Assembly (NCBI RefSeq): GCF_002849715.1
Contig: NZ_CP018863.1
Coordinates: 2,914,001-2,978,000, forward strand
Reading direction: 5' to 3'
DNA length: 64,000 nucleotides
Source: Arthrobacter crystallopoietes
Lineage (GTDB): Bacteria > Actinomycetota > Actinomycetes > Actinomycetales > Micrococcaceae
Shown here: positions 35,694-37,368 of the stretch, piece after piece
Layout of the letters: every line of letters starts with the position of its first letter
Numbering within the stretch: the first letter of the stretch is position 1
Position numbers and translations under genes: made by a program
Notes under the pieces: model-generated
What the model saw: only the letters and a program-made list of their open reading frames with translations
Told to the model about the DNA's origin: nothing
The model's database searches: none

Positions 35694-35834
35694 TTAAGCC
35701 GGCCGCGCGCCGTCGTCGTCCGTTTACTTTGAGTTATCCACCAGGTTGCCCGAAGTAGTTGTGCCGTAAATAACAGGGGCGTAGTTTTGGAGCTATCAGT
35801 CAGCAACACCGCGGATTGATCGGGAGGCCACCAT

Positions 35835-35942
35835 ATGCCGCTTTTCACGAAGCAGCGGGGGAGGCCGGTAACGGCCAGGTGGCCGGACCGTCTCACCCTG
35901 ACCCAGATCATTCGGAGCGCCAGCGCTCCGGACGGGAGCTAA
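35835..35942 (+). CDS. Predicted 35-residue basic peptide directly upstream of PhoH2 (PhoAT-like candidate)
   Basis: A short reading frame with an excellent ribosome-binding site (GGGAGG at 35822-35827, 7-nt spacer) starting at ATG 35835, beginning M-P-L-F-T-K-Q-R-G-R-P and ending A-P-D-G-S. An in-frame TGA at 35817 rules out a longer form. Its TAA is one base before the phoH2 GTG, and the phoH2 ribosome-binding site lies inside its last codons. In mycobacteria a small overlapping gene (phoAT) upstream of phoH2 is described as an antitoxin; this gene has the same position. Sequence homology to PhoAT is not shown. Confidence 0.5.
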   Translation: MPLFTKQRGRPVTARWPDRLTLTQIIRSASAPDGS

Positions 35943-35943
35943 A

Positions 35944-37368
35944 GTGGCCACCACTGAGAACATGAGTCAAGTCGCCGAGACCGGACGCCAGGCAAACGAA
36001 ACAGATGTTTCTGCTGCGGCGGACGGTCTTTCTGTTGCTGCCCAGGCGGCGGCAGACCCGGCCGGCGGAACACCGGAGCCTGCACAGTCCTTTGTGCTGG
36101 ACACCTCCGTTCTGCTGTCCGATCCGCGGGCGCTGATGCGCTTTGCCGAACACGAAGTCATCCTGCCGGTAGTGGTCATTACCGAGCTGGAAGGCAAGCG
36201 GCACGATCCCGAGCTGGGCTACTTCGCCCGCAAGGCGCTGCGGCTGCTGGATGATCTGCGGATTGAACACGGCGGGCTCAATACGGCGATCCCACTTGGG
36301 GAAGAGGGCGGATCGCTGCGCGTGGAGCTGAACCACATTTCCCCCGACGTGCTGCCGGCGGGTTTCCGGGGCGGGGACAATGACAGCCGGATCCTGGCGG
36401 TGGCGAAGAATCTGGCGGACGAGGGCAAGAACGTCACGGTGGTCTCCAAGGACCTGCCGATGCGCGTCAAGGCCTCGGCCATGGGGCTGCAGGCGGACGA
36501 GTACCGCAACGAGCTGGTCAAGGACTCCGGCTGGACCGGGGTAGCCGAGCTGGACGTGCTCGAAGACGACGTCAACAACCTCTACAACCACGAGCCGGTG
36601 TTCATTCCGGCGGCCGCGGAAATGCCGGCCAACACCGGCCTGGTCATGCTCTCCAACCGCGGCTCGGCGCTCGGCCGGGTGGGAGCGGACAAACAGGTCC
36701 GGCTGGTCAAGGGGGACCGTGACGTCTTCGGACTGCATGGCCGGTCCGCGGAGCAGCGGCTGGCGATCGACCTGCTGATGGACCCGGAGGTCGGCATCGT
36801 CTCGCTCGGCGGCCGGGCCGGAACCGGCAAGTCGGCGCTGGCACTCTGCGCCGGGCTGGAGGCCGTGCTGGAGCGCCGCGAGCACCGCAAGGTCGTGGTA
36901 TTCCGGCCGCTGTACGCGGTGGGCGGCCAGGAGCTGGGCTACCTACCCGGTTCCGAGTCGGAAAAGATGAACCCGTGGGCGCAGGCTGTCTTCGACACGC
37001 TCGGTGCCCTGGTCTCCACCGAGGTGGTGGAGGAAGTGATGGACCGCGGCATGCTGGAGGTGCTGCCGCTGACGCACATCCGGGGACGTTCGCTGCATGA
37101 CTCGTACGTGATTGTGGACGAGGCCCAGTCGCTGGAGAAGAACGTCCTGCTCACGGTGATGAGCCGGATCGGGCAAAACTCCAAGATCGTCCTCACCCAC
37201 GACGTGGCCCAGCGCGACAACCTGCGGGTGGGCCGCCACGACGGCATTGCCGCGGTGGTGGAGACGCTCAAGGGCCACCCGCTCTTCGGCCACATCACGC
37301 TGACCAGGTCCGAGCGCTCGCCGATCGCAGCGCTGGTAACGGAACTGCTGGAAGGGGCGGAAATCTAG
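35944..37368 (+). CDS. PIN domain-PhoH ATPase fusion (PhoH2-type RNase/RNA helicase)
   Basis: A two-domain protein of 474 residues. The N-terminal PIN RNase domain (about 50-180) keeps acidic metal ligands D53 (V-L-D-T-S), E81 (T-E-L-E), D144/D146 (G-G-D-N-D) and D169 (S-K-D-L). The C-terminal PhoH ATPase (about 255-474) has Walker A G-R-A-G-T-G-K-S near 289-296 and Walker B Y-V-I-V-D-E-A-Q near 387-394. Mycobacterial PhoH2 unwinds and cleaves RNA. GTG 35944 has GGGAG 5 nt upstream. Coupling to the 35-codon gene is described separately. Confidence 0.93.
   Translation: MATTENMSQVAETGRQANETDVSAAADGLSVAAQAAADPAGGTPEPAQSFVLDTSVLLSDPRALMRFAEHEVILPVVVITELEGKRHDPELGYFARKALRLLDDLRIEHGGLNTAIPLGEEGGSLRVELNHISPDVLPAGFRGGDNDSRILAVAKNLADEGKNVTVVSKDLPMRVKASAMGLQADEYRNELVKDSGWTGVAELDVLEDDVNNLYNHEPVFIPAAAEMPANTGLVMLSNRGSALGRVGADKQVRLVKGDRDVFGLHGRSAEQRLAIDLLMDPEVGIVSLGGRAGTGKSALALCAGLEAVLERREHRKVVVFRPLYAVGGQELGYLPGSESEKMNPWAQAVFDTLGALVSTEVVEEVMDRGMLEVLPLTHIRGRSLHDSYVIVDEAQSLEKNVLLTVMSRIGQNSKIVLTHDVAQRDNLRVGRHDGIAAVVETLKGHPLFGHITLTRSERSPIAALVTELLEGAEI

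What the first reader, a model, noticed from the sequence alone, without database searches (positions are those of the whole stretch)
35820..37368. Unannotated 35-codon gene abutting the PIN-PhoH gene: a possible PhoAT-PhoH2 toxin-antitoxin pair outside mycobacteria
Seen: ATG 35835 with GGGAGG 7 nt upstream, an in-frame stop just before it, a basic 35-residue product, and a TAA one base before the phoH2 GTG, whose own ribosome-binding site lies inside the small gene. Known: mycobacterial PhoH2 (PIN RNase fused to PhoH helicase) is reported to pair with a small upstream overlapping gene, phoAT. Inference: the same arrangement exists here. A hairpin GGAGCG-CCAG-CGCTCC at the end of the small gene could tie phoH2 translation to ribosome passage.
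Basis: partly seen in the sequence, partly recalled or inferred. Interest (0 to 1): 0.75.

Follow-up and report, generated by a model that had tools for sequence, protein, structure and literature searches.

The report
Structured leader RNA before PIN-PhoH gene
The small gene in front of this RNA-cutting enzyme gene looks less like an antidote protein than like part of a folded RNA switch whose start signal, but not whose protein, is kept across many actinobacteria, probably including the mycobacteria in which it was named an antitoxin.

Summary
What is conserved is a leader: hairpin P1, Shine-Dalgarno sequence, start codon, hairpin P2 inside the small ORF, and a hairpin P3 before the phoH2 ribosome-binding site. 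P1 plus the site occurs in 124 of 237 PIN-PhoH leaders; 118 of 124 have ATG, GTG or TTG 5-10 nt after it (background sites 19%). Stems covary (clearly in Mycobacteriales, weakly in the window genus), and P2 is crossed in all three frames. Covariance models from two clades find the element in other families, though the Mycobacteriales model barely scores the window itself. In Mycobacterium the position holds a probably leaderless ORF, probably phoAT, whose frame also shifts across P2. Published M. tuberculosis RNA-seq shows leader reads 4.7-11.9 times phoH2 coding reads. Best explanation: a translated upstream ORF in a cis-acting leader that attenuates phoH2. The sensing step is inferred; my folding simulation did not show it.

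The parts
35759..35787 (+). Probable promoter: TTGTGC (35759-35764), 17-nt spacer, TAGTTT (35782-35787); start of transcription expected near 35794
   Evidence: Largely conserved columns in the 10-genome alignment, positions; the consensus scanner did not call it, so inferred
35795..35820 (+). Hairpin P1 (ATCAGTCAGC / GCGGATTGAT) directly 5' of the Shine-Dalgarno sequence
   Evidence: 90% of cells paired in the genus, one pair unpaired in 7 of 10; 97.7% with 4 of 9 pairs changed on both sides in 24 Mycobacteriales
35822..35827 (+). GGGAGG, Shine-Dalgarno sequence of the small ORF
   Evidence: Sequence; P1 plus this site in 124 of 237 loci, NTG at 5-10 nt in 118 of 124
35835..35942 (+). Small upstream ORF, 35 codons, TAA one base before phoH2; start kept, peptide not
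   Evidence: pN/pS 0.89
35826..35832 (+). GGCCACC, 5' arm of a helix in the spacer between SD and ATG; partner 35878-35884
   Evidence: 97.1% of cells paired in the genus with C-G to U-G, A-U to G-U and A-U to G-C changes; the free-energy fold of the window pairs it elsewhere
35878..35884 (+). GGTGGCC, 3' arm of that helix
35863..35876 (+). Hairpin P2 (GGCCG-GTAA-CGGCC) inside the small ORF
   Evidence: 98% of cells paired in the genus but nearly invariant there, and only 5 pairs here, below the limit of the scan; compensatory changes; crossed in all three frames in the 40 loci where that scan found it
35913..35930 (+).
   Evidence: 95% of cells paired in the genus, no double change; a hairpin in the same place covaries in Mycobacteriales
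35934..35938 (+). GGGAG, Shine-Dalgarno-like site of phoH2
   Evidence: Sequence
35944..37368 (+). PIN-PhoH (PhoH2-type) gene, 474 aa
   Evidence: Pfam PF13638 and PF02562
34794..35693 (+). Upstream neighbour: undecaprenyl diphosphate synthase-like gene
   Evidence: Pfam PF01255

Best explanation
The 35-codon frame is the upstream ORF of a conserved, structured, cis-acting leader RNA that controls the PIN-PhoH gene, not a gene for an antitoxin protein. Shown by comparison: P1, SD plus start codon, P2 inside the ORF and (in the clades tested) a hairpin before the phoH2 ribosome-binding site are kept; start codons change among ATG, GTG and TTG; the peptide is free to change. Inferred: ribosomes load at the upstream ORF and pass through P2, so leader folding and continuation into phoH2 depend on translation. 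When translation of the leader falters, transcription or translation is attenuated before or in phoH2 (Rho-type termination or RBS occlusion), giving more leader than phoH2 mRNA. In the window's genus TAA-A-GTG adds simple coupling. The mycobacterial phoAT position is, most likely, the same leader with leaderless initiation.
For: Initiation signal: 118 of 124 loci (53 of 58 non-redundant) have NTG 5-10 nt after the SD; ten other 6-position windows in the non-redundant set give 3-16 of 58; mononucleotide shuffles mean 10.9, max 20. Background GGGAGG sites: P1-like 16 of 149, NTG 28 of 149, P2-like 14 of 149, all three 0 of 149; leaders with all three 90 of 237. Peptide not selected. P2 crossed in phases 1, 2, 0 in 17, 13, 10 of 40 loci. 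Covariation: clearly, 54 and 55 weaker. Homology: R1 (Mycobacteriales) hits Jiangella 3.3e-9, Flexivirga 9e-8, window-genus L092 5.9e-5; R2 (window genus) hits Arthrobacter 5.3e-17, Sinomonas 1.5e-7, L138 of Mycobacteriales 2.3e-5. Place: the best whole-genome hit is the phoH2 leader in 7 of 9 genomes with R1 and in 10 of 10 genus genomes with R2. Mycobacterium. Published M. tuberculosis RNA-seq: phoH2 5'UTR 210 nt, UTR/CDS 4.7 exponential, 11.9 stationary (PMC3207917 Table 8).
Against: The folding simulation shows no consistent opening of the phoH2 RBS with ribosome position in 16 leaders, though single ones such as L087 and L143 rise. No intrinsic terminator. R1 scores the window leader at only 11.3 bits (E 0.71), below another place in the window (12.3 bits at 3129-3205, minus strand), and does not list it in the own-genome search. 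R1 and R2 also give some hits of E 0.005-1 at other places. Four of the seven R1 genomes and all ten R2 genus genomes supplied training rows. In the 21 MER-type Arthrobacter loci the ORF length is constant, and the first codons in Mycobacterium have pN/pS 0.41, so some peptide role is possible there. 113 of 237 loci, 33 of them Mycobacterium, lack the strict element. Openness through P2 is not special to the true frame (open 18 codons or more in 48 of 56 loci, 30 and 45 in the other frames). PhoAT is reported to bind PhoH2 and relieve its effect (passages of PMC4826407 and PMC7390352).
Confidence: 0.72

Rival explanations
1. It is a PhoAT-like protein antitoxin that binds and restrains the PIN RNase of PhoH2.
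For: Position and overlap resemble mycobacterial phoAT; PhoAT is reported to bind PhoH2 and relieve its growth effect (passages of PMC4826407, and PMC7390352). First codons in Mycobacterium pN/pS 0.41.
Against: No amino-acid selection seen in the window genus, Arthrobacter or other Mycobacteriales (intervals are wide, but phoH2 lies far below them); the peptides of different clades show no common sequence by eye; frame changes at P2 even within Mycobacterium; several genomes keep phoH2 with short leaders and no evident small ORF (by eye).
Confidence: 0.1
2. Only translational coupling: the small ORF delivers terminating ribosomes to the phoH2 start, and P3 blocks de novo entry.
For: TAA-A-GTG in the window and P3 before the RBS; coupled RTGA small ORFs are over-represented in mycobacteria (PMC4633059, passages).
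Against: The stop lies 30-35 nt before phoH2 in Arthrobacter, about 60-70 nt in many Mycobacteriales, and beyond the phoH2 start in others; it does not explain P1 and P2.
Confidence: 0.2
3. PhoH2 autoregulation: the PIN-PhoH protein binds, unwinds or cuts its own leader hairpins.
For: PhoH2 is reported to act on double-stranded RNA with an overhang and to cut sequence-specifically (PMC7390352, passages); the element's strong matches lie at this gene.
Against: The reported motif AC[AU][AU][GC] is not enriched in 58 leaders (38 against 36.5, sd 5.6, in shuffles) and absent from the window leader.
Confidence: 0.15
4. DNA element: P1 and P2 are operator palindromes rather than RNA stems.
For: P2 is nearly palindromic with a conserved sequence.
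Against: P1 sequence varies while pairing is kept, and G-U pairs are frequent (12, 12 and 11 of 24 in three P1 pairs); a conserved start codon is not expected.
Confidence: 0.04

Closest known systems
PhoAT-PhoH2 of mycobacteria (reported type II toxin-antitoxin)
   Same: PIN-PhoH gene with a small ORF directly upstream, reported co-transcribed (PMC7390352 passages)
   Different: Here, and in the unnamed Mycobacterium-type genomes compared, RNA structure and start codon rather than peptide are conserved; no binding or rescue tested
toiL uORF of the E. coli topAI-yjhQ toxin-antitoxin mRNA
   Same: A translated uORF in a structured leader controlling a toxin-antitoxin mRNA (abstract and outline of PMC12121999)
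   Different: Different phylum, gene and RNA; there ribosome stalling is proposed to open the topAI RBS, which my folding simulation did not show here
Coupled and leaderless small ORFs of mycobacteria
   Same: An example whose small-protein sequence is not conserved while leaderless initiation and coupling are (PMC4633059 passages; the gene of that example was not seen)
   Different: Those passages describe no RNA element; here hairpins are conserved across families and initiation is mostly SD-led
M. tuberculosis leaders that combine a riboswitch with a uORF (Mbox, B12)
   Same: Leader uORF combined with structured RNA (titles and abstract starts of PMC12810186 and PMC11260477 in a listing only)
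   Different: No known riboswitch family matches here

Membership tests
PhoAT-PhoH2 type II toxin-antitoxin | Toxin gene encodes PIN fused to PhoH | tested here: met
   PF13638 2.9e-24 and PF02562 7.1e-50
PhoAT-PhoH2 type II toxin-antitoxin | Small ORF immediately upstream, adjoining or overlapping | tested here: met
   Window TAA-A-GTG; not kept across genera
PhoAT-PhoH2 type II toxin-antitoxin | Small ORF encodes a conserved protein under selection | tested here: not met
   pN/pS 0.89 [0.60-1.50] against 0.09 [0.03-0.19] for phoH2, same genus
PhoAT-PhoH2 type II toxin-antitoxin | Small protein binds PhoH2 and relieves its effect | not testable with these tools
   Reported for mycobacteria (passages)
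uORF-controlled structured leader | Conserved initiation signal of a short ORF in the 5' leader | tested here: met
   118 of 124 loci, 53 of 58 non-redundant
uORF-controlled structured leader | Covarying RNA stems around the ORF | tested here: met
   clearly; weaker
uORF-controlled structured leader | Ribosome position changes access to the downstream RBS or a terminator | tested here: inconclusive
   No consistent opening in 16 leaders; no intrinsic terminator; Rho not testable here
uORF-controlled structured leader | Leader transcript exceeds coding transcript | not tested
   Published for M. tuberculosis phoH2, ratios 4.7 and 11.9; no data for the window organism
Known riboswitch or RNA family (Rfam 15) | Covariance-model match in the leader | tested here: not met
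   Window region: only isrG at 10.7 bits, gathering 100. No match at gathering in 10 loci, one of them the window's own; three sub-threshold matches in 8 further loci, none credible

The most novel reading that the evidence does not exclude
An undescribed RNA leader spread through the Actinomycetes gates the PIN-PhoH RNase-helicase by sensing translation of its own uORF, and mycobacterial phoAT is this leader rather than an antitoxin gene, so its reported rescue could be a cis effect of leader RNA or translation.
Probability: 0.45. Interest if true: 0.8.

Novelty: new variant of a known kind. Interest (0 to 1): 0.64.

Why it matters
It would turn a catalogued type II toxin-antitoxin pair of mycobacteria into a question of cis-acting RNA control, give PIN-PhoH proteins (function still poorly known) a translation-linked regulatory context, and add an actinobacterial leader RNA not matched by Rfam 15. 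It is directly testable with leader reporters in harmless actinobacteria, and it warns that small ORFs before toxin-like genes need codon-level tests before being called antitoxins.

Tried and rejected
Rejected: (1) protein antitoxin, by pN/pS and frame changes. (2) Known riboswitch: Rfam searches empty or below threshold; the ASdes match in L249 (889-956) lies far from its leader. (3) Intrinsic terminator or consensus sigma-70 promoter: none by the scanner. (4) RBS switching by ribosome position: no consistent effect in 16 leaders. (5) Autocleavage motif: not enriched. (6) WblC regulon: its PhoH-like member SCO2532 is called a YbeZ orthologue in passages of PMC7157823, so I take it not to be this PIN-PhoH gene. 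(7) Openness through P2 as a sign of selection: 40 of 40 loci are open, but frame +2 is also mostly open, so I do not use it as evidence.

Rows left out, and choices made before counts. One search kept the best 80 of at least 593 relatives. The 60 fetched stretches were picked by me from capped lists. The 237 loci hold some duplicates: L083 is the window itself, and L245 and L246 are the same places as L175 and L181. A1 uses 24 of the 33 loci held from the G012 family outside its main genus; nine were left out (L137, L140, L157, L161 without the strict P1; L145, L147, L155, L162, L250 as near-duplicates or odd spacings). A3 uses the 21 Arthrobacter loci with the MER-type ORF, so its constant ORF length is partly a result of that choice; relatives L003, L009, L017 and L022 have other frames and lengths. 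A4 uses 27 of 31 Mycobacterium loci (L163 and L177 lack P2, L170 has an insertion, L176 was collapsed as a duplicate). The Mycobacterium pN/pS uses 24 of the 27 (L167, L169, L186 have one-codon length differences). The Mycobacteriales pN/pS was done on ungapped, unaligned codons. A5 uses 19 of the 24 (L136, L144, L149, L159, L251 have other spacings). The genus phoH2 control uses 9 of 10 (no anchor in L092). P2 was found in 40 of 56 non-redundant loci with a start codon; the window's own P2 is too short for that scan. The simulation listed 18 leaders and computed 16. R1 was run on 59 sources and R2 on 41, not on every locus held. The structures counted on A1-A5 were drawn by me from member sequences, which favours them over the slid controls.

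Literature searched for a prior report of such a leader; none seen, but subscription papers, including the original PhoAT paper, are not held, so which ORF was named phoAT is inferred from position. Of the seven papers listed, I opened only PMC3207917.

Full report
OBSERVATION. GGGAGG lies at 35822-35827 and ATG at 35835; an in-frame TGA is at 35817-35819; the frame has 35 codons and ends with TAA at 35940-35942, one base before GTG 35944. The downstream product has a PIN domain (PF13638) and a PhoH domain (PF02562); the gene before it is of the undecaprenyl diphosphate synthase family. The genome has one other PhoH match over the cut-off. The related loci point to an Arthrobacter-like member of the Micrococcaceae; the genome itself is unnamed.

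COMPARATIVE SET. PIN-PhoH loci were taken from 80 named contigs, the best of at least 593, 10 genomes of the window's genus including its own, and genomes of the class, of the family of G012 (judged to be Mycobacteriaceae from its size and number of species) and of its main genus, judged to be Mycobacterium, plus 60 stretches chosen from those lists. 238 loci could be anchored on the PIN domain; leaving out L002, a duplicate of the window's own locus, gives 237, among which two Mycobacterium places occur twice.

WHAT IS CONSERVED. In the genus alignment the intergenic stretch is conserved in blocks. Across families the same order recurs: a hairpin P1; CGGGAGG(C/T)C; a start codon; a GC-rich hairpin P2 some 15-60 nt after it; a variable stretch; and, where tested, a hairpin P3 just before the phoH2 ribosome-binding site. 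With the start codon ignored, 124 of 237 loci have P1 next to GGGAGG or GGAGAGG; 58 are non-redundant. Of these, 118 of 124 and 53 of 58 have ATG, GTG or TTG at 5-10 nt; ten other windows of six positions give 3-16 of 58, and mononucleotide shuffles give a mean of 10.9 and a maximum of 20. The start codons counted at 4-11 nt in the 58 are ATG 17, GTG 24, TTG 15, none 2. At 149 background GGGAGG sites in the same loci, P1-like hairpins occur in 16, NTG in 28, P2-like hairpins in 14, all three in none; all three occur in 90 of 237 loci. A start codon that changes among its three forms while keeping its spacing is best explained by selection for initiation there.

WHERE IT IS MISSING. By the strict scan P1 plus the site is present in 49 of 80 named loci, 10 of 10 in the window's genus, 65 of 114 other loci and 0 of 33 Mycobacterium loci. 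Some of the misses still match model R2 (below); others, such as Kocuria, Micrococcus and several Intrasporangiaceae, seem to have short leaders without it (by eye).

RNA STRUCTURE. In 24 Mycobacteriales outside Mycobacterium (A1) P1, a small hairpin after the start codon, and P2 pair in 91.5% of cells; the covariation score is 0.326 against 0.220 +/- 0.012 in shuffles (0 of 500), and at most 0.108 when slid. P1 is 97.7% and the inner P2 99.4% paired; the hairpin after the start codon is weaker (72.3%). RNAalifold, run without my structure, finds P1 and P2 but not that third hairpin. In the window genus (10 rows, 4 near-identical) 94.3% of cells pair; the score is 0.110 against 0.085 (1 of 500), but the number of pairs with double changes is not significant (137 of 500). 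In 21 Arthrobacter the score is 0.067 against 0.050 (0 of 500), with little variation in P2 and P3. In 27 Mycobacterium, P2 pairs in 99.5% of cells, 0.136 against 0.098 (0 of 500), again with the count of doubly changed pairs not significant (107 of 500). The hairpin just before the phoH2 RBS in 19 Mycobacteriales scores 0.307 against 0.163 (0 of 500). The window leader folds with z -3.33; its best fold keeps P1 and the P3 hairpin but pairs the GGCCAC next to the small ORF's start with the phoH2 start region rather than with 35878-35884, so the outer helix rests on comparison alone.

ONE ELEMENT, AT ONE GENE. Model R1, built on the Mycobacteriales, finds leaders of Jiangella (3.3e-9), Flexivirga (9e-8), Nocardioides and relatives, and two members of the window's genus, L092 (5.9e-5) and L091 (1.6e-4), among 59 sources. 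It is weak on the window itself: 11.3 bits, E 0.71, below a chance place at 3129-3205 with 12.3 bits, and several sources have hits of E 0.005-1 elsewhere. In the window's own genome R1 lists nine weak places (best E 0.21), none of them this leader. Model R2, built on the window genus, finds Arthrobacter (5.3e-17), Sinomonas (1.5e-7) and L138 of the Mycobacteriales (2.3e-5) among 41 sources, and also loci that the strict scan had missed, such as L009, L022, L025 and L027. In nine genomes searched with R1 the best hit lies at the phoH2 leader in seven (misses G126 and G103), second hits being E 0.001 or weaker; four of the seven supplied training rows, so the independent score is three of five. 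With R2 all 10 genus genomes, which supplied its rows, have one strong hit (E 5e-30 or better; the next in the window's genome is 0.55); of 19 other relatives five have a hit of E 0.0014 or better, of which I checked only G011 to lie at phoH2.

THE PEPTIDE IS NOT WHAT IS KEPT. pN/pS with bootstrap intervals: window genus small ORF 0.89 [0.60-1.50]; Arthrobacter 0.83 [0.41-1.77]; other Mycobacteriales, codons 2-13, unaligned, 0.82 [0.65-1.04]; Mycobacterium, codons 2-12, 0.41 [0.21-1.05]. phoH2 over 29 codons of the same genomes gives 0.09, 0.08, 0.14 and 0.06. In the window genus 15, 14 and 15 columns vary at codon positions 1, 2 and 3. P2 is crossed in phase 1, 2 and 0 in 17, 13 and 10 of the 40 non-redundant loci where the scan found it, out of 56 with a start codon; the window's own P2 is too short for that scan. 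The small ORF ends one base before phoH2 in most of the window genus, 30-35 nt before it in Arthrobacter and about 60-70 nt in many Mycobacteriales, runs past the phoH2 start in others, and is in frame with phoH2 in Sinomonas L028. Against my reading: in the 21 aligned MER-type Arthrobacter the 23-codon length is constant, 9 of 10 genus members share the P2 frame, and openness through P2 is no test because frame +2 is nearly as open.

MYCOBACTERIUM AND PHOAT. In 31 Mycobacterium loci the same place holds an ATG about 8 nt behind a TAGCGT-like box, so probably leaderless. The first dozen residues (MASDMLCC.GGT) are largely kept; P2 was matched in 28 of 31 and lies in phase 1 in 20, phase 0 in 3 and phase 2 in 5; in 2 of these the ORF stops after 13 codons, before P2 (L166, L179). 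L163 and L177 lack P2 and their ORF is in frame with phoH2. P1 was not found there (0 of 33). Many of these ORFs overlap the phoH2 start, which fits the short upstream gene phoAT described as co-transcribed and as binding PhoH2 (PMC7390352, passages; PMC4826407, passages).

MECHANISM. Shown: conserved initiation signal, conserved RNA stems, largely free peptide, strong matches at this gene. Supported by others' data: in M. tuberculosis the phoH2 5'UTR of 210 nt has RPKM 208 against 44 for the coding part, UTR/CDS 4.7 in exponential and 11.9 in stationary phase, and the authors say that high ratios in that table suggest candidate riboswitches (PMC3207917, part 1 of section 12). Inferred: leader translation through P2 governs continuation into phoH2, by Rho-type termination or RBS access. 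My attempt to show an RBS switch by folding 16 leaders with a ribosome footprint at each codon gave no consistent opening, although single leaders (L087, L143) rise, and no intrinsic terminator is present, so the attenuation step is the weakest link. The nearest worked-out case is the toiL uORF of topAI-yjhQ in E. coli (abstract of PMC12121999). The PhoH2-preferred motif is not enriched in leaders (38 seen, 36.5 expected; none in the window), which gives autoregulation by cleavage no support.

NOVELTY. No match in Rfam 15 for the window leader, and none at gathering threshold or credible below it in 17 other loci; no paper seen in searches describes the element, in a library that lacks most subscription journals. 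The excess of phoH2 leader reads in M. tuberculosis is already in print. uORF-bearing structured leaders are a known kind; this one, its spread and its bearing on phoAT are new as far as I could see.

On rereading the calls I corrected the Rfam locus count, added that training rows are among the whole-genome hits, added the weak R1 results on the window and the alternative pairing in the window's fold, and named the loci left out of A1.

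Noticed in passing
L025 and L003: A contig titled Vibrio cholerae strain 35D and a MAG titled Acidobacteria bacterium encode PIN-PhoH proteins 86% and 84% identical to the window's; probably mislabelled or contaminating actinobacterial DNA.
   Followed up: no
L028; L163 and L177: A Sinomonas locus and two Mycobacterium-type loci have the upstream start codon in frame with phoH2, so the small ORF is an N-terminal extension there.
   Followed up: partly
L037, L041, L043, L047, L052, L062, L066, L081: Several Intrasporangiaceae-type, Kocuria and Micrococcus loci have short phoH2 leaders with no evident small ORF, P1 or P2 (by eye).
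   Followed up: partly
L133-L160, between P2 and phoH2: In many Mycobacteriales a third block, GACCGGYC-N-AGCRA, sits between P2 and the hairpin before phoH2; it could compete with P2 arms for pairing.
   Followed up: partly
L214, L237, L244: In some lineages a hairpin plus GGAGG directly precedes phoH2 itself, as if phoH2 took the place of the small ORF.
   Followed up: no
window 31890-34031: The DUF255 (thioredoxin-like) gene has a Gly/Ala-rich low-complexity stretch near its C-terminus.
   Followed up: no
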